This document shows positions 33,524 to 47,434 of a DNA stretch of 64,000 bases, one piece after another (positions within the stretch are counted from its first letter, which is position 1; every line of letters begins with the position of its first letter). This DNA comes from Halolamina pelagica. GTDB lineage: Archaea; Halobacteriota; Halobacteria; Halobacteriales; Haloferacaceae. The translations under genes and the position numbers were made by a program. A model generated the notes under the pieces. The model did no database searches and had not been told where the DNA came from. It was given only the letters and a program-made list of their open reading frames with translations. The stretch is from assembly GCF_900115675.1 (NCBI RefSeq), contig NZ_FOXI01000013.1, positions 1 to 64,000 of the forward strand, written 5' to 3'.

Positions 33524-33772
33524 ATGAGCAGTAAGCGGATTGACGCCGAAAGCAAGGTTTCGGGAAATCAGGCGAACATCCCGGCCCAGATACGGCGGGA
33601 GCTCGATATCGACGACGGCGACCACTTACGGTGGCACTTGGAGAACGGGACAGTCCGGGTGGAAGTTGTCCAGCAAGAGACTGGTACATTCGCGGAGTTC
33701 GACGGCTATGGTGGAGAGGAAGATACTGACGTAACGACGGACCACGACGACTGGGGCGTCGACGCCGAGTAG
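33524..33772 (+). CDS. vapB: AbrB/MazE-type antitoxin
   Basis: 82 residues. The N-terminal swapped-hairpin domain (SKVSGNQANIPAQIRRELDI, DDGDHLRWHLENGTVRVEVV) is a SpoVT/AbrB DNA-binding fold. The acidic C-terminal tail (about residues 52-82) is suited to wrapping the toxin. It ends directly against the toxin start (TAG then ATG). It neutralises the PIN RNase encoded downstream and likely autorepresses through the palindrome at 33475-33492. Confidence 0.85.
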   Translation: MSSKRIDAESKVSGNQANIPAQIRRELDIDDGDHLRWHLENGTVRVEVVQQETGTFAEFDGYGGEEDTDVTTDHDDWGVDAE

Positions 33773-34207
33773 ATGCCGCGAGCGCTTCTCGATACCAGTG
33801 TGCTGTTCGCGGCGGCGTATCAACGTGACAGCGCTCATGCAGACGCAATGCCGATTCTACGAGGCGTCGACGACGGGTCGCTTCCAGAGGCCGTCGTGTT
33901 GGATTACGTGCTTGCAGAAACGCTGAACGGGCTGACGACGCATGCAGGTCACGATGCAGCCGTCGATCTTCTCGACAGGATCGAGGAAAATGCCCGATTC
34001 CACATCGATTCCCTTCGGTCCGATGCGATGGTCACAGGGAAGGCGCTGTTCAGGCAGCACGCGTCGCTATCCTTTGTCGATGCCTGTCTCGTTGCGTACA
34101 TGCAGAGTGAGGGACTAGGGTATCTCTACGCGTTCGACGACGACTTCGACACCATCGGGGACGTGTATCGGCTCGACACGGCGACGGACCCGTATGAGCC
34201 GGAGTGA
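33773..34207 (+). CDS. vapC: PIN-domain ribonuclease toxin
   Basis: 144 residues. The PIN active-site acids are visible: D7 (LLDTSVLF), E49 (VLAETLNGL), D103 (SFVDACLVA) and the late pair around D122-D126 (FDDDFDTI). These bind Mg2+/Mn2+ and cleave specific RNA, commonly initiator tRNA or rRNA in the VapC family. It is coupled to the preceding antitoxin without a gap. A third small frame overlaps its stop by GTGA. Confidence 0.9.
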   Translation: MPRALLDTSVLFAAAYQRDSAHADAMPILRGVDDGSLPEAVVLDYVLAETLNGLTTHAGHDAAVDLLDRIEENARFHIDSLRSDAMVTGKALFRQHASLSFVDACLVAYMQSEGLGYLYAFDDDFDTIGDVYRLDTATDPYEPE

Positions 34208-34422: not shown

Positions 34423-34686
34423 CTAGATACGTTTCCCGCCGACGAAGTAGGCACGCCATCGGGAATCTTCGAATGTAACCTTCACGTTCCACTGCTTTGC
34501 CGACCTCGACTCGTAGATGATCGTTATGTCGGCATTGACGGTCTCGTCCGGAGAGGTCGATCGATCAGGTACCGAATAGATCCCTTCGACCCAGGCGATT
34601 CCGGGCTGATCTTTGTCAGGAGTAAGATCCACGACTGCCTCCCGAGGCGATTCTCCGGTCCCGACCCACTCATTTTCGTCGTCGTT
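34423..34686 (-). CDS. Hypothetical protein
   Basis: 87 residues from ATG 34686 (MNDDENEWVGTGE). Soluble and beta-rich (GIAWVEGIYSV, NADITIIYES, WNVKVTFEDSRWRAYFVGG). No family is recognised. It lies convergent/divergent between the VapBC locus and the giant secreted protein gene. Confidence 0.5.
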   Translation of the reverse strand, partial: NDDENEWVGTGESPREAVVDLTPDKDQPGIAWVEGIYSVPDRSTSPDETVNADITIIYESRSAKQWNVKVTFEDSRWRAYFVGGKRI

Positions 34687-34833
34687 CATCCACTTGATCA
34701 CCCGGGCGCCTCCGATGGGGAATACATCTATCAGCCAAAATATGGCACGCTCTCAGTTAGAACGAGAAGCCAGCGATCATCCTGTCGCACACCTGGCAAA
34801 GACTATTATAGTTACATTTGATAATAAATCGTC

Positions 34834-37800
34834 ATGGGTAGACCCGGGTCATTTGGAAACATCGCGTTACCGGTGGTGCTCTCAGTCTTGTTGGTCCTGG
34901 CGCCGATGACCGCGTTTGTCACGCCAGGCAGCGCGGCCCCAGCGACCGATACAGCACCGTCGCTCTACGTGGCTTCCGACAGCGATGCTGTCCAAGACCA
35001 GAGTGGAGGGTCGGACATCCTCGGTGCTGTCGTAGACACGGTTGATGCAGCGGCTTCGATGCAGGCCAACGAAGCCCCCGTAATCGAAGATACGGACCCG
35101 GAGGACACGATGCGAACCGAATCAGGTGTCTGGTCGGATGAATTCTATGTCGATGCCACTGATCCAGACGGCGACGAGCTGACCTACACCTGGAATTGGT
35201 GGGATGGCGACGAACTGCTCGGAAGCTGGGAAAACGACGAGCGTAACGACTTCAAATGGGATCAGCCGGGCACGTATACGATCGAAGTTGTCGTAAGTGA
35301 CGGCCAGGCGAGTACGAGCTACCAGTGGATGTTCATCATCGAAGAGGCCGACACCACGGACTCCTTCGAACTTGACCTCAACACGGACGGTGAGGGAATC
35401 GTCGAAGCGAACCCGCCAGGCACCATTGGTGATTCGTTCAGTGAAACCTACGAGTCAGGTGACACCGTCCAGTTGACCGCCGACGCCGATGCGAACTACG
35501 AATTCACTGGCTGGGAGGGTGACGTCGAGAGCCACCAACGTGACGACAAGTCTATCGAAGTCACGATGGATCAGGCCAAGGACATCACCGCGACGTTCGA
35601 ACAAGCCGATAACGAAGCCCCAATCATCGAATGGGCCAGTCCGGACCACACGGTCAGGACCGATGTCGGCGAGTGGTCAGAGTACTTCGAAGTGCAGGCG
35701 AACGACCCCGATGGAGACGATAGCGACCTCACCTACACCTGGAAGTGGTGGGATGATGACGAGCTCCTTGGCTCGTGGGAGGATGACGAACGTAACGACT
35801 TCAAATGGGACGAGCCGGGCGAGTACACGATCGAGGTCATCGTCAGTGATGGTGAGGATACGACCAGCTATTCCTGGGAGTTCATCATCGAATCGGGCAC
35901 GACCACCTACGAGCTTGACGTTGAGAGCGATGGTGGCGGTGACGTCGATATCGACCCGCCAGGCCGCACTGACGATGCTTTCCAGGCGGACTACGAGGAA
36001 GGCACAGAGATAGAACTCACGGCAGACGCTGATACTGGCTACGAATTCGCCGGGTGGGAGGGTGATCTCGCGAGTGACAAACGCAACGAACGGTCCATCG
36101 AGGTCACGATGGACCGGGCCAGGGACCTCACTGCAACCTTCGAGCGGGCTGCAAACGAGGCCCCAGAGATCATCGATGTTAGTCCCCGTGGAACCGTCAC
36201 AACGGCCGCTGGTGAGTGGTCCGAAGTGTTCGAAGTGGATGTAACGGACCCTGACGGGGACGATTCCGACCTCACCTACACCTGGAAGTGGTGGGATGAT
36301 GATGAACTCGTCGCGACGTTCAAGGACAGCGGCGCCGATAACGATTTTAAGTGGGATGAAGAGGGCGACTACCGAATTGAGGTTGTCGTTAGTGATGGTG
36401 AGGACTCGGTGAGTCACTCCTGGGAGTTCATCATCGAGGCCGACACCACGACATACGACCTCGAAGTCGACACCGACGGCAGTGGCGATGGCGAGGTGGC
36501 ACTGGCCCCGCCCGGGACGACTGTCGAGAACTACGAGTCGGCATTCGAAAGCGGAACCGTAATCGAGCTGACGGCCAGGTCTGGTGAGGAATCGAAGTTC
36601 ACTGGCTGGGACGGTGACCTGGCGAGCTACAAGCGGGACGAACGGTCCATCGAGGTCACGATGGATCAGGCCAGGGACCTCACCGCGACCTTCGAGCAGG
36701 CCACCAACCAGGCACCTGTAATCGAGGCCATCGACCCAGAGGGGACTATGCGGACCGAGCTAGGTGTCTGGTCCGAGCCTTTCGAAGTACACGCGACCGA
36801 TCCCGATGGTGACGATAGCGACTTGACGTACACCTGGAAGTGGTGGGACGGCGACGAACTCATCGCATCCTGGGATGACGACGCAACGATGGATTTCAAG
36901 TGGGATGAAGAGGGCGAATACAGGATCCAAGTCGTCGTCAGCGACGGGGAGCATTTGACAAGTCACTCCTGGGAGTTCATCATCGGCACGCCTGGGGACA
37001 ATACAGGGCCCCCACTCGAGGTAGCTACAGTAGATTTGAATGGCGACTCGTTCGTCGCAGGGCAGCAGGCAACGGGTTCGGTGACCCTGGAGACGGCTGG
37101 TGAGCAGTCCCGCGAGGTCGCGCTTGGAGTTCAGGCCGTCGGTCCCAACGGCGATACATATGCGGTCGACCTCCGCGATGGGCCAGATGTGTTGGTGCCC
37201 GGTGAGGGCCCGACCATTGTCGACGTCATGTTGCCGGTCAGGGACGGCTATCCGACGGGGGAGTACGATCTTCGTATCACGGTCTGGCCAGCTGACAGTC
37301 CGCAGACCGCGGAGACACGACTCCTGCGGACCACTCGAGAGGCGGCCTTTGACGTCGTTCCGCCCAAATCCGAGCGAGCGGCCGTCTCGATTGGTGACCT
37401 CGATCGGGACAGGTACCTCTTTGACGAAACCGTGGACATGACCGCGACCGTCGAGAACACAGGGAATTCCGAACGGACGTTCGATGTGTCACTGTTCCTC
37501 AGACGCCCGGACGGGACGCGTCTGGACGTCGGCGAAAAGCGGGGTGTGACAATCACTCCTGGCCGAGATCGTGAGCTGGACTTCCAGCATCAGTTCGGAG
37601 ACAACGGGCTTGCCGGTGAATACGATATCGTCGTGGAGGTATCTGAAGCCGGTGACGAGATCACCAGTATGACCGACCGTAAAGCCTTCGACCTGGTTGG
37701 TGGTGATGCCGCCGACGTAACGATTGACTACGTCTATCTGGGTGGGGCTCTAGTGAGCCCAGAGGACCACGTTTCCCCCGTGATTGGTGTCTCGACTGGA

Positions 37801-39636
37801 GAACTCGGACGAGAGCTTGTAGTCGAGTACACGCTTCGGGGGCCGGATGGGGAGATATACACTCCCCGCGAGAACACTCGGAGCATCGAGCTCGGTGAGT
37901 TCGGCCACGAGCAGTTGCGGCCGGAGATCCGCATTACCGATCAGTATCCGGATGGCCAGTACGATCTCATAGTCACAGTGAAAGCCAGCGAGGACAGCAG
38001 CCAGGTGTTGGCCCGCCAGGTGAAAGAGAGCGGAATCGAGGTTGACGGCAACAGTGACGCCTCAATTTCACTGGCCCCCCAGGGTGAGTTCTCTGCCGAA
38101 GTCACACTCTTCAGAGACGGTGACCGCATCGGTCTGGATTACATCACCGATGGCGATTCGATCACGTTCGATGGGCTTGCTGCCGGCAGTTACACCGTCG
38201 AGTATGCGATGTACTTCCCTGGCGGAAAAGACACGGTTCGTCGCTCCATCCAGCTTTCGGATGGCCAGGCCAGGGTCCTTGAACTGGATCCTGAGAAGGC
38301 CTCGGCGTCCGGCTTCGTTGAGATCGACGGGACACGGCTGAATTACGGTACCGTCGTTATCAGCGGCGAGCCTGCCGACACTGATAGCAATGGGAACTTC
38401 CAGACCGGGCCATCCCTCTCCCCAGGCTACCATACCTTGTTGGTCAAGTACGACGGCCGTACGATTTACCGGGAGGGCGTCGAGATCGAACCTGGCCAAA
38501 ACCGGATCGACGTCACCATCGACTATGTCGATCCCCATCCCGATGACGAATTCGACGGGGAGGAACTGATGCTGGGCTTTTGGTGTGGCGAACTCTGCTA
38601 TGCGAGTGGTGATTCCGGCCATACGAACGCCGAATACATGCTTGGCTGGATGCTCGGCGCGGTGAACCCGGCCTTCGACGTCCGTGATGGCCTGGCCTCT
38701 GCTGGGAAGGGGGATGCCGTCGGTGTTGGCCTCTCGATCATTGGCCTGGCACCGTACGCCGGGGACATCTCCTCAATTGGCGGCCGGCTTGCGCGTGTCA
38801 TTCCCGACTTGCCGTCCAGTCAGGCGTTCCGGCTCAAGGAGATGGTCCGCAAGTCCTCGATTAACAAGAAGGACGAACTGCTGGACTATCTCAACCAGCA
38901 CACCTCTGCTAAGAATACGCTCAAAGAGAGCTTCGGGCTCAGCGGTGACTTCACCAAGCGGCTGAGTGACAGCAGAGCCAGGAAGCTCCGTTTTGCAGCC
39001 GGGCGGATGAAAGCCGCCGGCTACGACAGCGAGGATGTCGCGCGGTTCATCCGGCGCAATGGGGAGAGTGGCAATCTCCAGAAGGTTGACGAGTTCTCCC
39101 ATGCTGTCTATCAGTATGAGAAGGCGACCGATACCGTCCCGAAAACGCATGGAGAGATGCTCGAAGCGATCTGGTTCAACCGGGTTCGGAAGGCAGAGGG
39201 GGCAGACATCGCCCGGAAAACCACCCAGGGCGGGCAACTCACAGCGGGCAAAACCTACGTGGCTACCGGTGTCGAGCTTCGGGCTGGCGGTGAACTCGAC
39301 GTGGTTGTCTTCACCGTTGACGAAGCTGGCAACCCCACAGTGACGAAAGCTTATGAGGTGACTCGTGGGTCGGTCAGCAACAAGCCGACCAACCAGCTCG
39401 TTCGGAACCTCGGGCGCGGTGCCGATGCGGGCAGTGATAGCCACCATTACCTGGACAGTGATGCCTTTGCTCGCCAGGCAACGGCCCAACAGGATGGTGG
39501 GTACGTCGGGTTTGCTGACGACGTCGACATCAACATTGCCGACAGCCGGACACCGACGGCAGGCGCACAGTTGTACGACGATGCCGAGTTCGCGCGCATG
39601 AGCGATGATCTGGGGCTGGTAAAGGATGACCCGTAG
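34834..39636 (+). CDS. Giant secreted polymorphic-toxin-like protein
   Basis: 1600 residues. A Sec-type signal peptide (about 1-35) is followed by four PKD-like units (~79-170, 260-350, 436-527, 616-708; each with DPDGD, LTYTW.WWD, FKWD, VVSDG) alternating with three InlB-type beta repeats (GYEFxGWEGDLxS, TMDxAxDLTATFE). Then come Ig-like domains (~720-1250), a hydrophobic segment (~1268-1312, VGLSIIGLAPYAGDISSIGG) like the pre-toxin linkers of bacterial polymorphic toxins, and a C-terminal domain (~1440-1600). There GGELDVVVFTVDEAG and KAYEVT resemble the core of restriction-nuclease folds. A lipoprotein gene overlaps its end. A cell-surface toxin delivered to neighbours is a reasoned inference. 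Confidence 0.7.
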   Translation: MGRPGSFGNIALPVVLSVLLVLAPMTAFVTPGSAAPATDTAPSLYVASDSDAVQDQSGGSDILGAVVDTVDAAASMQANEAPVIEDTDPEDTMRTESGVWSDEFYVDATDPDGDELTYTWNWWDGDELLGSWENDERNDFKWDQPGTYTIEVVVSDGQASTSYQWMFIIEEADTTDSFELDLNTDGEGIVEANPPGTIGDSFSETYESGDTVQLTADADANYEFTGWEGDVESHQRDDKSIEVTMDQAKDITATFEQADNEAPIIEWASPDHTVRTDVGEWSEYFEVQANDPDGDDSDLTYTWKWWDDDELLGSWEDDERNDFKWDEPGEYTIEVIVSDGEDTTSYSWEFIIESGTTTYELDVESDGGGDVDIDPPGRTDDAFQADYEEGTEIELTADADTGYEFAGWEGDLASDKRNERSIEVTMDRARDLTATFERAANEAPEIIDVSPRGTVTTAAGEWSEVFEVDVTDPDGDDSDLTYTWKWWDDDELVATFKDSGADNDFKWDEEGDYRIEVVVSDGEDSVSHSWEFIIEADTTTYDLEVDTDGSGDGEVALAPPGTTVENYESAFESGTVIELTARSGEESKFTGWDGDLASYKRDERSIEVTMDQARDLTATFEQATNQAPVIEAIDPEGTMRTELGVWSEPFEVHATDPDGDDSDLTYTWKWWDGDELIASWDDDATMDFKWDEEGEYRIQVVVSDGEHLTSHSWEFIIGTPGDNTGPPLEVATVDLNGDSFVAGQQATGSVTLETAGEQSREVALGVQAVGPNGDTYAVDLRDGPDVLVPGEGPTIVDVMLPVRDGYPTGEYDLRITVWPADSPQTAETRLLRTTREAAFDVVPPKSERAAVSIGDLDRDRYLFDETVDMTATVENTGNSERTFDVSLFLRRPDGTRLDVGEKRGVTITPGRDRELDFQHQFGDNGLAGEYDIVVEVSEAGDEITSMTDRKAFDLVGGDAADVTIDYVYLGGALVSPEDHVSPVIGVSTGELGRELVVEYTLRGPDGEIYTPRENTRSIELGEFGHEQLRPEIRITDQYPDGQYDLIVTVKASEDSSQVLARQVKESGIEVDGNSDASISLAPQGEFSAEVTLFRDGDRIGLDYITDGDSITFDGLAAGSYTVEYAMYFPGGKDTVRRSIQLSDGQARVLELDPEKASASGFVEIDGTRLNYGTVVISGEPADTDSNGNFQTGPSLSPGYHTLLVKYDGRTIYREGVEIEPGQNRIDVTIDYVDPHPDDEFDGEELMLGFWCGELCYASGDSGHTNAEYMLGWMLGAVNPAFDVRDGLASAGKGDAVGVGLSIIGLAPYAGDISSIGGRLARVIPDLPSSQAFRLKEMVRKSSINKKDELLDYLNQHTSAKNTLKESFGLSGDFTKRLSDSRARKLRFAAGRMKAAGYDSEDVARFIRRNGESGNLQKVDEFSHAVYQYEKATDTVPKTHGEMLEAIWFNRVRKAEGADIARKTTQGGQLTAGKTYVATGVELRAGGELDVVVFTVDEAGNPTVTKAYEVTRGSVSNKPTNQLVRNLGRGADAGSDSHHYLDSDAFARQATAQQDGGYVGFADDVDINIADSRTPTAGAQLYDDAEFARMSDDLGLVKDDP

Positions 39637-40291
39637 GCAGCTTCTCGCCGTCTTGGCACTCGCCCTCCTGGTGTCGCTGGCCGGCTGTAGCTCCGTCTTG
39701 GGCGGTCAGACACCCACTGACCAGCCCCCTGTCGAAACTGCGACAGACGGTGTGAACCCCACTGCATCGGAACCCAGCCAGACCCAAAGTGAAACGGCCG
39801 ACAACAACAGCGGGAGTGTCTCCGAGTCAGCTAGATTCCCAGAGTCGTTCAGCCCGTCGTCGTCTCTTCCGTATTCCTCGGACTTGCCGGTCGATGGCTA
39901 TCTCCGCATCGACGAAACACAAGGCTCCGGCCTCCCAAAGACGAGCAGTCGGACGTTCGAACGGACTGATAGCGCAACAGAACCAGGGCCGACTGCGCTT
40001 CGGGCCGCAATCACTATCCACGAGTCCACCGACACCGCTTCGGCTTGGGTTACAGATCGCACTGACGCACTTCGCTCGAATGGGTCGAAGATCACTCGCC
40101 ATTCGATTTCTGGTGAGTCAGTAACGATGGCAACCGGGATGACGGGCGACTCGATGGAGACAGTTGTCCTGAGCCGTATTGGAAATGCCGTCGTAATCAT
40201 CCACGCCGAAAGCCCGAAGTCGGCTTTCGAGGAGTTCTGCCAAGAGACGCTGCGTGTTGTCCTCACGAAGCTCCAAGCCTACGACGGGTAG
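39626..40291 (+). CDS. Lipoprotein, candidate immunity or partner protein
   Basis: 221 residues, beginning MTRRQLLAVLALALLVSLAG with the lipobox LAGC (lipidated Cys at about 22), followed by a Thr/Ser/Pro-rich tether and a folded domain (~75-221, e.g. ITIHESTDTASAWVTDRTDA, MVVL-like METVVLSRIGNAVVIIHAE). The gene overlaps the giant protein by 11 bases, so the two are translated together. In polymorphic toxin systems a small gene directly after the toxin encodes immunity, sometimes a lipoprotein. Sequence alone does not prove this. Confidence 0.7.
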   Translation: MTRRQLLAVLALALLVSLAGCSSVLGGQTPTDQPPVETATDGVNPTASEPSQTQSETADNNSGSVSESARFPESFSPSSSLPYSSDLPVDGYLRIDETQGSGLPKTSSRTFERTDSATEPGPTALRAAITIHESTDTASAWVTDRTDALRSNGSKITRHSISGESVTMATGMTGDSMETVVLSRIGNAVVIIHAESPKSAFEEFCQETLRVVLTKLQAYDG

Positions 40292-40723: not shown

Positions 40724-41113
40724 TTACGACGAAATGTAGTCGGTCACCTGACCCGCCACATCCTTGGTGCGGTCGTCGACGAGTGCGGTCAAGTAGTGTT
40801 CGACGTCAGCCGCACTGTTGCGGGTCCCGAGCGACCACGGGAGCGCATGACTTCGCTCCCCGAGTGGCTCGCCCTCATAGTCGTCGTCCCGGAGCGTGAG
40901 TGAGTCTTCGTGATAGGTCTTCGAGGAGAGCAGGATCGTGATGAGTTGCGTCCCGTGGGTCGAGAGTTGCGGGTCCTCAAGCACGAGTATCGGACGACCG
41001 TTCTCCGAAAGTGGATCACTCGCCCAAACGATATCGCCGCGTTCCAGTCCTCGAAGTCCGTCACTGCACGTCCTCCATCTCCTCGGTCTGGAGCTCCTCA
41101 AGGCGTTCTTCAC
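40724..41113 (-). CDS. PemK/MazF-type toxin, 5-prime end unclear
   Basis: Conserved sequence runs from LERGDIVWASDPLSENGRPI, VLED to LTALVDDRTKDVAGQVTDYI (about 110 residues), a MazF/PemK endoribonuclease fold with the typical RGDIVW N-terminus and GRPxLVL strand. No ATG, GTG or TTG lies in frame near the expected start; the frame is open to ATG 41113 but adds an arginine-rich stretch. A GTG at 41062-41064, overlapping the upstream regulator stop, would start VTD in the neighbouring frame, so a one-base insertion near 41055 is likely. The gene may be damaged. Confidence 0.7.
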   Translation of the reverse strand: MKNALRSSRPRRWRTCSDGLRGLERGDIVWASDPLSENGRPILVLEDPQLSTHGTQLITILLSSKTYHEDSLTLRDDDYEGEPLGERSHALPWSLGTRNSAADVEHYLTALVDDRTKDVAGQVTDYISS

Positions 41114-44587: not shown

Positions 44588-47434
44588 CTATTCGAACGTG
44601 ATCTGGAGCTGCTCTCGCTCCTCTAGATTCTCCTTGTAGCTCTGCAGGATGTCACTCCAGTCTGCCTGGCCCGCTAGCCAGCGACTCTTCAACTCTGGAT
44701 CGGGAGTTGCCTGTTGCAGACTGGTGAAGGTAATCCCCTCCAGTGTCCGGTCCCATCCGTCGAAGACCATATCATCATCACCGAACTCGTAGTCTTCCCA
44801 CATCGTTCCCCGCCACATGTATGTGTCCAGTCCAGTTTGCTTGATGAAATTCTTCTTCTCGCCCTCGCTCAGATCGGCCTTCTCGACTCGATCGATATCG
44901 AGTTCCGGCGGTTCCGGAATTTCCATTCGGGACTTGATCTGGAATGCGAGTCGAATATCCCGGTCGTACCACTCAGGATAGCCAAACGCCTGGCGATAGT
45001 CCCGGTATTTCCCCGTCATGGGGTCGAGTTGGCCGTTATCGGCCATATTACGAAGCCGCTGGTAGAGCGTGAGTGCTTCGACCGGCCCACGGTTATGGAA
45101 GGAGACAAACGAGATGGAGTAGGGGTCGTTGCTATAGTCGATCAGATTGTCAGGTCCCGACCGGCGGGTAGTACCCCCGATCATCGTGTCGACGCTCTCG
45201 ACTGCATACTCCTCGTTGTCCTCATGGTACAGCAACCACATCTCCTGCCGGGTATTCTTCGCTTCATCCCGGTCAGTCCCCGAGTAGTTCATATTAAAGA
45301 CCGGTTCCTCCCAGCTCGTGGCATTATTGAGCCACTGGTTAATCCCGTTCCTAACCTTCCGTTCGTCGATGAATTTCTGGGTTACATAGTCATCGAGGCT
45401 GTTGAGTTCGTCATCGACCCGCTGAAGAGTGAGATCTTCATCATCCAGCTTATCGCGGCGGATCGGGAAGATTCCAAGCCGTTTTCCGGTACCTTCACTA
45501 GAGAGTTCATCCTTCTCTTGCTCAATCGACCGGTTGAGTGCCTCAATTCGGTTCTTCGCTTCTTCCTTTTCGTTTTCGCGTGCAGTGATCAGCGAATTCA
45601 CTGAACTGATTTTATCATCAAGCAGGTTCTTCGCCCGCCCCCGACGGCTCCGAACAGCCTCCTTCATCGCCTGCACCCGCTGGTACCGACCATCTGCTTC
45701 AAGCAGATCATCCCGAGAGTCACGCAGCTGCTCGAGTTTCTTTTCTGCTGCTTCTCGGTCACTTTCGGTCAGCGGGTGCCATGGTGGGAAGGCCTCCTGA
45801 AGTTGTCCAACAGTTCCGAGATCCACATTTTCGAGTTCCTCCTGGAACTCGTCGATTTTCTCGCTATAGAAAGTCTTGAGGGCCTCTACCTTCCCTTCAA
45901 GGGTTGATGTGGCGCTACCCCCGTACTTCGTCCGGCCTGCCATATCATATGTACGCCACTGCTTCGAAACGGTCTCCTCCCAGTGGTTTTCGACAGCGGG
46001 CGCCGCATTGGGGACCTGGAACATCTCTTCCAGAATATCCGTTGCGACCAGCAACCGTTCTGCCCGCTGGTCTGCACGGATATCTTCGAGATCCTCCGGC
46101 TCGTCCGATTCCTCGGCGTCCTCTCCTTCAGGTGCTTCCGGAGTTGCTTCTGCCTCGATGGCGTCAAGGACACGGGTGACGTCATCAGTAGAGCTGTTTC
46201 GAACAAGCGCGTTCCCAGCACCGAGCTGGGATTCAAATCGACCCCGGTAATTCTCCTCCCAATCGGAAACGTTCTCGAGAAGCTCGTTAATCGCAGCCGG
46301 GTCCTGTTTGATTTCCTCGAGTTCGTCCTTCTCTGTACGCAGGTCTTCCAGTTGGTCAGGTATCGTCTCAGTAACAAGCGTTTGTTTCTCATCACGCTCG
46401 TCTTTCATTTCACAGAAATCGCGTACCTGCTGGTGCGGGACCTGCAGCTGCGCATGTCCAACAGTCCCGAGCGGGGCCGTGCCTTTGGCCCGACTGGACC
46501 AATTCTCGACAGACTGCTCCATCTCGGAAAGCGCGTAGATACTCTCTGCGACTCGGCTGTTGATCTGATCTCGGTAGCCCTCAACGAAGTCAGTCCCAGT
46601 CCCGCTGGTAATCAGATTCTCGTCGACACCAACCAGCCAGTAATCGTTGTAGGGAACCCGTTCGATCGGGATTGAGTTACCCGTGAACGATTCTTCGACA
46701 CGCTCGTCGACGTTGGATAGGCTTCCACCTTGGCTGAAACTCTTCGAGTAAATCGGAATATCGAGTGCCTCAGCGTCAGCACCAAGCAAGTTACTCAGGT
46801 CACTCAGCGCGGAGTACGTGTTGGGATAGTACATCTCCTCGCCCGGTGGATTCGTCACCTCGGGGTCGAAATCGACCTGCGGAGCAACACCAACCCCACC
46901 GACATACACGTCAACGTTGTCGTTCTGATCTTCAATGCGCTGGGCGATCCGATTCAGCATTGCCGAAAGAAGCGGGAAGGTCCCGCTTCCAGTGCCGCCC
47001 CCGAGGGAGTGGAGCAAGAAGATGTTGTACGAGTCCCGATCCTGCGTGAACGAGTAGTCCACTTCCTGGTAGTGTTCGAGAATATCGTACCAGAGGGATT
47101 CGAAGTAGTCATCAAACGTCTCATGACCCCGGCTGTCCAGTTTGTATCGGCCGACAGGACGCTGTCGTTCTGCCCCCTTCCCACCCACTTCCGTACCCTC
47201 AGTCAGGTACGGGTAGGTAGCCATATCCTCGTCAAGGTGGGCATCAGAAACGTTGAGTCGCACACGGGTTGTTCCCGACGGAACGCTTCCAAGCGTATCG
47301 CCATCAGTATCGATGGCAAAGTAATCGAAGAACTCCTCGCTGCCATTCCGCTCGACAGTCTCGGCGAGGGTGTTCATCATCGTGATTCCGGCCTGGCCGA
47401 CGCCAATAGTAAACGTCGGTAACGGATCCGTCAT
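44588..47434 (-). CDS. Large tubulin/FtsZ-superfamily protein 1
   Basis: 948 residues. The N-terminal GTPase-like domain has GVGQAG (11-16), AIDTDGD (FtsZ AxNTD position), and LGGGTGSG (144-151), the tubulin signature loop. After about residue 330 the protein departs from FtsZ, with coiled coils (~345-385 and ~570-690, e.g. DQLEDLRTEKDELEEIKQD, RIEALNRSIEQEKDELSSE) and an acidic linker (EGEDAEESDEPEDLEDIRAD), then a long C-terminal domain (~720-948). It is twice the length of FtsZ. It resembles the poorly characterised large tubulin-like proteins of prokaryotes, some proposed to remodel membranes. A second copy lies at 50158-52464, and a membrane-anchored protein gene lies between them. Confidence 0.85.
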   Translation of the reverse strand: MTDPLPTFTIGVGQAGITMMNTLAETVERNGSEEFFDYFAIDTDGDTLGSVPSGTTRVRLNVSDAHLDEDMATYPYLTEGTEVGGKGAERQRPVGRYKLDSRGHETFDDYFESLWYDILEHYQEVDYSFTQDRDSYNIFLLHSLGGGTGSGTFPLLSAMLNRIAQRIEDQNDNVDVYVGGVGVAPQVDFDPEVTNPPGEEMYYPNTYSALSDLSNLLGADAEALDIPIYSKSFSQGGSLSNVDERVEESFTGNSIPIERVPYNDYWLVGVDENLITSGTGTDFVEGYRDQINSRVAESIYALSEMEQSVENWSSRAKGTAPLGTVGHAQLQVPHQQVRDFCEMKDERDEKQTLVTETIPDQLEDLRTEKDELEEIKQDPAAINELLENVSDWEENYRGRFESQLGAGNALVRNSSTDDVTRVLDAIEAEATPEAPEGEDAEESDEPEDLEDIRADQRAERLLVATDILEEMFQVPNAAPAVENHWEETVSKQWRTYDMAGRTKYGGSATSTLEGKVEALKTFYSEKIDEFQEELENVDLGTVGQLQEAFPPWHPLTESDREAAEKKLEQLRDSRDDLLEADGRYQRVQAMKEAVRSRRGRAKNLLDDKISSVNSLITARENEKEEAKNRIEALNRSIEQEKDELSSEGTGKRLGIFPIRRDKLDDEDLTLQRVDDELNSLDDYVTQKFIDERKVRNGINQWLNNATSWEEPVFNMNYSGTDRDEAKNTRQEMWLLYHEDNEEYAVESVDTMIGGTTRRSGPDNLIDYSNDPYSISFVSFHNRGPVEALTLYQRLRNMADNGQLDPMTGKYRDYRQAFGYPEWYDRDIRLAFQIKSRMEIPEPPELDIDRVEKADLSEGEKKNFIKQTGLDTYMWRGTMWEDYEFGDDDMVFDGWDRTLEGITFTSLQQATPDPELKSRWLAGQADWSDILQSYKENLEEREQLQITFE

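What the first reader, a model, noticed from the sequence alone, without database searches (positions are those of the whole stretch)
34834..40291. Archaeal polymorphic-toxin-like protein with an overlapping lipoprotein
Seen: signal peptide, alternating PKD and InlB-type repeats with ~545-base DNA period, a pre-toxin-like hydrophobic linker (LSIIGLAPYAGDISS), a nuclease-like C-terminal core (GGELDVVVF then YEVT), and a lipoprotein gene overlapping by 11 bases. Known: bacterial polymorphic toxins have this order and an immunity gene just downstream. Inference: an interbacterial-style conflict system in Haloarchaea.
Basis: partly seen in the sequence, partly recalled or inferred. Interest (0 to 1): 0.8.

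Follow-up and report, generated by a model that had tools for sequence, protein, structure and literature searches.

The report
Haloarchaeal secreted polymorphic toxin with lipoprotein
A salt-loving archaeon carries a giant secreted protein whose nuclease-like tail has been swapped in its relatives, as in bacterial toxin weapons, and the lipoprotein gene beside it goes with the protein's delivery part rather than with its tail.

Summary
The genes are real: a 1600-aa secreted protein (34834-39636) with 4 PKD and 3 InlB repeats, CARDB-like domains, a hydrophobic linker and a variable C-terminus, overlapped by 11 bp by a 221-aa lipoprotein gene. Carrier similarity and tail type are uncorrelated. 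AlphaFold gives the window tail a PD-(D/E)XK-like core, but the usual Lys is replaced (T/G/Y/S) and no profile search is significant, so activity is uncertain. The immunity reading is weakened: this rare lipoprotein family (11 of 391 haloarchaeal genomes) lies beside the 3' end of such a carrier in 12 of 12 loci whatever the tail. Its similarity follows the carrier (rho 0.44, p 0.007), not the tail (p 0.24), and some tails have their own small gene. The lipoprotein model has the MOG1/PsbP/DcrB fold, shared by T6SS Eag chaperones and the immunity protein Tsi3. Best reading: a haloarchaeal polymorphic toxin with a carrier-level lipoprotein partner.

The parts
34834..39636 (+). 1600-aa secreted polymorphic-toxin-like protein
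   Evidence: ORF; Pfam repeats; relatives
34834..34944 (+). Sec-type signal peptide region (residues 1 to about 37)
   Evidence: direct reading: MGRPG...LPVVLSVLLVLAPMTAFVTPGSAA, no Cys lipobox
35068..36990 (+). four PKD and three InlB (Flg_new_2) repeats, PKD starts 543-552 bp apart
37006..38577 (+). CARDB/NEW3-like and carboxypeptidase-regulatory-like domains: the carrier part shared with relatives
   Evidence: Pfam NPCBM_assoc 6e-5 and weak CarbopepD_reg_2; blastp 42% over 528 aa to G141 and hits to G264 and G368
38578..38814 (+). hydrophobic pre-toxin-like linker (AEYMLGW..DVRD..GLAP..GD), shared with proteins that carry other C-termini
   Evidence: linker HMM hits with E 6e-10 to 9e-6 in further proteins
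38815..39147 (+). helical spacer
   Evidence: AlphaFold model, pLDDT 79-89 over most of it
39148..39633 (+). C-terminal domain with PD-(D/E)XK-like core: E1444 in helix, D1489 on strand 2, E1508 on strand 3 (YEVT, no Lys), Q1521 in the next helix
   Evidence: invariants; topology
39626..40291 (+). 221-aa lipoprotein, MOG1/PsbP/DcrB-like fold, constant partner of this carrier class

Best explanation
A haloarchaeal polymorphic toxin. The 1600-aa protein is exported by its signal peptide; its Ig-like repeats (PKD, InlB, CARDB) form a long extracellular stalk; the hydrophobic linker marks the junction at which the C-terminal effector domain is exchanged; and the C-terminal domain, probably a divergent PD-(D/E)XK-fold nuclease, is the payload for a competitor. 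The overlapping gene makes a membrane-anchored MOG1/PsbP/DcrB-fold lipoprotein that belongs to the carrier and not to the payload: most likely it holds, chaperones or docks the giant protein at the producer's surface, or protects kin at the level of carrier binding or uptake. Shown: gene anatomy, tail swapping, lipoprotein-carrier linkage. Predicted: folds. Inferred: toxicity, delivery, the lipoprotein's task.
For: Tail swapping: carriers G264, G319 and G244 are 37-50% identical over 750-1286 aa but have different tails, and carrier similarity is uncorrelated with tail type (rho 0.01, p 0.41). The same linker precedes BECR-RNase-like tails (PBECR1 at 0.009, 0.017 and 0.13, all sub-threshold, tied together by BLAST), a LELD...EAK tail and the window tail. 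Other carriers of the class end in canonical GEID...VEVK cores at the same place. Window tail: invariant E, D, YEV, Q in four divergent homologues; alpha-beta-beta-beta-alpha core, pLDDT about 61-83. Lipoprotein: homologous in all four homologues. A lipoprotein profile finds 7 further loci, all 7 directly beside a giant carrier, and a twelfth was found from the carrier side. Lipoprotein similarity tracks the carrier (Mantel rho 0.44, p 0.007) and not the tail (0.08, p 0.24). Fold match: DcrB Z 10.6, EagT6 9.3, SciW 9.2 (Foldseek 1.3e-3).
Against: No significant profile or fold match for the tail, and no significant profile-profile link between the window tail and the ExK tails. The ExK lysine is T/G/Y/S in this subfamily, so the tail may be inactive. 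Structure models rest on 4 sequences, with low mean pLDDT (58 and 53). Eight of the twelve loci, the window's included, have no other gene between carrier and lipoprotein, so immunity by the lipoprotein is not excluded. The Mantel test has only 12 loci, related by descent.
Confidence: 0.6

Rival explanations
1. The lipoprotein is the cognate immunity protein, acting at the cell surface against re-entry of the toxin.
For: It overlaps the toxin gene and nothing lies between; the four loci with this tail type all have it next to the tail; its fold is also that of Tsi3, the immunity protein of Tse3 (Z 8.4; PMC3792639).
Against: The same family accompanies carriers with unrelated tails, including four with their own small gene after the toxin; similarity does not follow tail type; a surface protein cannot easily neutralise a nuclease acting in the cytoplasm.
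Confidence: 0.25
2. The protein is a surface adhesin or recognition protein whose variable C-terminus is a binding module, not an enzyme.
For: PKD, InlB and CARDB repeats are common in haloarchaeal surface proteins (general knowledge; PKD/CARDB hits); the tail lacks the catalytic Lys and has no significant nuclease match.
Against: Equivalent positions in related carriers hold canonical ExK cores and BECR-like tails with their own downstream genes; no C-terminal anchor.
Confidence: 0.15

Closest known systems
Predicted archaeal polymorphic toxin systems (Makarova et al. 2019 mBio, not held here; described second-hand in PMC8416519)
   Same: Large secreted multidomain proteins with Ig-type repeats (arCOG07560 and PKD arCOG02508 named in PMC8416519, the former as PTS-associated), variable nuclease C-termini, adjacent partner genes, none characterised experimentally per PMC8416519.
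   Different: This tail family has no Pfam or NCBIfam match, and the lipoprotein follows the carrier rather than the tail. PMC8416519 mentions an uncharacterised arCOG14565 protein beside many haloarchaeal PTS; whether it is this lipoprotein could not be checked.
Bacterial polymorphic toxins / CDI (Zhang et al. 2012, PMC3482391)
   Same: Signal peptide, repeats, pre-toxin region, exchangeable C-terminal REase-fold or BECR-type toxin.
   Different: No known bacterial pre-toxin domain or processing protease was detected, no tested immunity protein; the usual immunity position in the window holds a lipoprotein of carrier-level distribution.
Eag (DUF1795) chaperones EagT6 and SciW of T6SS effectors (PMC7773334)
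   Same: MOG1/PsbP-like fold and genetic linkage to toxins with hydrophobic segments; Zhang 2012 Table 1 lists a MOG1/PsbP-like gene (printed MOG1/PspB-like) as a T6SS toxin neighbour.
   Different: Cytoplasmic, not lipidated, in bacteria; no T6SS is implied here; no sequence similarity found.
Tsi3 immunity protein of Tse3 (PMC3792639)
   Same: Same general fold (Z 8.4), exported, beside a toxin gene.
   Different: Neutralises one muramidase effector; here the partner family spans unrelated tails.

Membership tests
Polymorphic toxin system | Conserved N-terminal carrier with exchanged C-terminal domains among relatives | tested here: met
Polymorphic toxin system | Export signal | tested here: met
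   signal peptide by direct reading of the translation; no predictor run
Polymorphic toxin system | Pre-toxin region conserved before the variable tail | tested here: met
   linker HMM, 19 proteins besides the window's with several tail types
Polymorphic toxin system | Cognate immunity gene downstream, co-varying with the tail | tested here: not met
   the downstream lipoprotein varies with the carrier, not the tail; other loci do have a separate small gene
Polymorphic toxin system | C-terminal domain is toxic | not testable with these tools
   needs expression
PD-(D/E)XK nuclease superfamily | alpha-beta-beta-beta-alpha core with acidic residues on strands 2 and 3 | tested here: met
   AlphaFold model, moderate confidence in the core; conserved E, D, E
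PD-(D/E)XK nuclease superfamily | Lys of the (D/E)XK motif | tested here: not met
   YEV[TGYS] in all four homologues; a nearby Lys (K-x(2-3)-Q) might substitute, inference only
PD-(D/E)XK nuclease superfamily | Significant match to a member family or structure | tested here: inconclusive
   only sub-threshold: NotI 0.014 for G141; Card1 Z 2.9 and VC1899 Z 2.3; none significant
MOG1/PsbP/DcrB fold (lipoprotein) | Fold match well above background | tested here: met
   DcrB Z 10.6 over 100 residues, EagT6 9.3; Foldseek 1.3e-3, probability 1.00; model pLDDT about 62-76 in the domain
Eag/DUF1795 chaperones | Sequence family match | tested here: not met
   no DUF1795/DcrB Pfam hit in 8 members

The most novel reading that the evidence does not exclude
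Haloarchaeal polymorphic toxins have a dedicated, lipid-anchored extracellular partner of the MOG1/PsbP fold that acts on the carrier (holding its hydrophobic linker or tethering it at the surface), an outside-the-cell counterpart of the T6SS Eag chaperones; a single partner serves interchangeable toxins, with tail immunity handled separately.
Probability: 0.25. Interest if true: 0.75.

Novelty: new variant of a known kind. Interest (0 to 1): 0.55.

Why it matters
Archaeal polymorphic toxins have been predicted, but PMC8416519 (2021) states they had not been experimentally characterised; how a single-membrane archaeon displays or releases such proteins is unknown. This locus gives a compact two-gene module with orthologous sets, natural tail swaps at 37-50% carrier identity, and a specific partner to test. 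It also warns against calling the gene next to a toxin its immunity gene: here comparative data separate carrier partner from payload partner.

Tried and rejected
Tail searches gave no significant hit in Pfam, NCBIfam, PDB sequences or Foldseek. The genome-contig scan with the single protein found none, and with the alignment only Halomicroarcula rubra NZ_RKLR01000027.1, the same locus as G368. No hit in viral contigs or plasmids. Tail-only hits in G265 and G260 were spurious (a reductase-like protein and an out-of-frame ORF). hhalign of the window tails against ExK tails was not significant. The upstream 92-aa gene 34423-34701 was considered as immunity; it has no counterpart near relatives. 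Promoter and terminator scans were uninformative. Makarova 2019 not held.

Full report
What is there. The window is on contig C34 (65,264 bp) of a haloarchaeal genome (kinship within class and order shown; one relative is Halomicroarcula rubra). Gene 1, 34834-39636, encodes 1600 aa; gene 2, 39626-40291, a 221-aa lipoprotein, overlapping 11 bp. Domains of gene 1: signal peptide, four PKD and three InlB repeats with 543-552 bp spacing, CARDB/NEW3-like and carboxypeptidase-regulatory-like domains, a hydrophobic linker, a helical spacer and a C-terminal domain. It is the only carrier of this sort in its genome, and no other genome of its genus that was searched has it.

Relatives. Whole-length relatives of linker plus tail exist in three other genomes, G141 (about 48% identity), G264 and G368 (22-24%). 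In all, the C-terminus keeps E, R, G..D, Y-E-V and Q. All four have a homologous lipoprotein beside the tail: in tandem in the window and G141 (overlaps of 11 and 8 bp), convergent in G264 and G368.

Are tails swapped? Yes. The linker alone recurs in 16 more proteins with different tails: BECR-like RNase tails in G396 and G276 (PBECR1 at 0.017 and 0.009, below cut-off) with small genes right after them that look homologous by eye, a LELD...EAK tail in G113, tails of a further type in G434, G134 and G268 (tied by BLAST), and helical-repeat tails. From the carrier side, G264, G319 and G244 are 37-50% identical over 750-1286 aa, yet G264 has the window-type tail, G319 FDLLV...YIEVK and G244 VDVRI...YAETK. 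G075, G238 and G317 end in LDLKV...VEVK, EIDLI...VEVK and EIDLV...IEVK. Across 12 loci, carrier similarity and tail type are uncorrelated (rho 0.01, p 0.41). The tail classes themselves were assigned by motif reading plus weak Pfam and BLAST links.

Is the tail a nuclease? Probable fold, uncertain activity. With only four sequences AlphaFold gave the order helix (191-207 of the slice, E196), strand, strand (D241), strand (E260), helix, which is the PD-(D/E)XK core order, at pLDDT about 61-83 for the first helix and the strands and below 50 beyond. Foldseek found nothing significant; the second look listed Card1 (Z 2.9) and VC1899 (Z 2.3), which from general knowledge carry such domains, but among unrelated rows of equal or higher Z. 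NotI appears at E 0.014 for G141, NOV_C at 0.027 for G319, UPF0102 at 0.15 for G238: all sub-threshold, all of PD-(D/E)XK type from general knowledge. Profile-profile comparison between the window-type tails and the ExK tails was not significant. The motif lysine is absent in all four homologues.

What is the lipoprotein? A profile of its globular part finds 8 and then, with 8 members, 11 of 391 haloarchaeal genomes. Four were known from the tail search; the other seven are an independent test, and all seven lie directly beside the 3' end of a giant secreted carrier (1524-2162 aa), convergently, with or without one small gene between. A twelfth was found from the carrier side (G396, E 2.3e-11). 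The other linker-bearing proteins, without CARDB-type carriers, lack it. Lipoprotein similarity correlates with carrier similarity (rho 0.44, p 0.007), not with tail type (rho 0.08, p 0.24). In G298, G227, G075 and G396 a separate gene of 146-245 aa follows the toxin directly and is the natural immunity candidate. In the window and seven other loci no such gene intervenes, so there the immunity question stays open.

Its model (pLDDT about 62-76 in the domain) matches DcrB (Foldseek 1.3e-3, Z 10.6), EagT6 and SciW (Z 9.3 and 9.2), and more weakly Tsi3, PsbP, Mog1, PknH and LpqN. No sequence family matches. Eag chaperones hold hydrophobic effector segments (PMC7773334), Tsi3 is an immunity protein (PMC3792639), and Zhang et al. 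2012 list a MOG1/PsbP-like gene among T6SS toxin neighbours (PMC3482391). The fold thus fits both a chaperone and an immunity role; the distribution favours a carrier-level role.

Prior knowledge. Zhang et al. 2012 called classical systems rare in archaea. Makarova 2019 predicted many archaeal systems but is not held here; PMC8416519 reports that they had not been experimentally characterised, that large CARDB-containing secreted proteins occur in Halobacteria and that arCOG07560 among them is often PTS-associated, and that an uncharacterised arCOG14565 protein sits beside many PTS. That protein might be this lipoprotein; this could not be checked, so the novelty claim is limited to the inference that the partner follows the carrier and has the MOG1/PsbP fold.

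Confidence. Polymorphic-toxin architecture about 0.85; PD-(D/E)XK-like fold about 0.65; active nuclease about 0.4; lipoprotein as carrier partner rather than cognate immunity about 0.65; Eag-like action about 0.25.

Noticed in passing
33524-34207: A VapBC-type pair just upstream; an 80% identical pair lies about 7 kb from the unrelated carrier locus of G238 (L099 501-1277).
   Followed up: partly
40724-41113 (-): MazF/PemK-like protein by eye, downstream of the lipoprotein gene; with VapBC it brackets the module with toxin-antitoxin-like genes.
   Followed up: no
44588-47434 (-): 948-aa protein beginning with a tubulin/FtsZ-like glycine-rich N-terminus (FTIGVGQAGITMMN..., GGGTGSGT) followed by a long coiled-coil-like part.
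   Followed up: no
L032, L033, L036, L062, L065, L066, L071: Linker-bearing proteins with a short signal-anchor-like N-terminus and helical-repeat C-termini that differ at the extreme end; G438 has three linker proteins, one of 449 aa identical to the 717-aa one over 94 residues after the linker and then truncated.
   Followed up: partly
L034 5432-6781 (-): A PQQ-type beta-propeller protein encoded directly behind the PKD/Big_7 carrier of G106, in the position where others have an immunity gene.
   Followed up: no
L083, L085, L086, L098, L099, L100 carriers: A second, different linker type (for example IPQQIN...NP...WYGGY) precedes the tails in carriers that have the same lipoprotein partner.
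   Followed up: partly
G000:C29:62754-66620: The same genome has an open frame of 2924 aa with about 14 PKD_4 matches.
   Followed up: no
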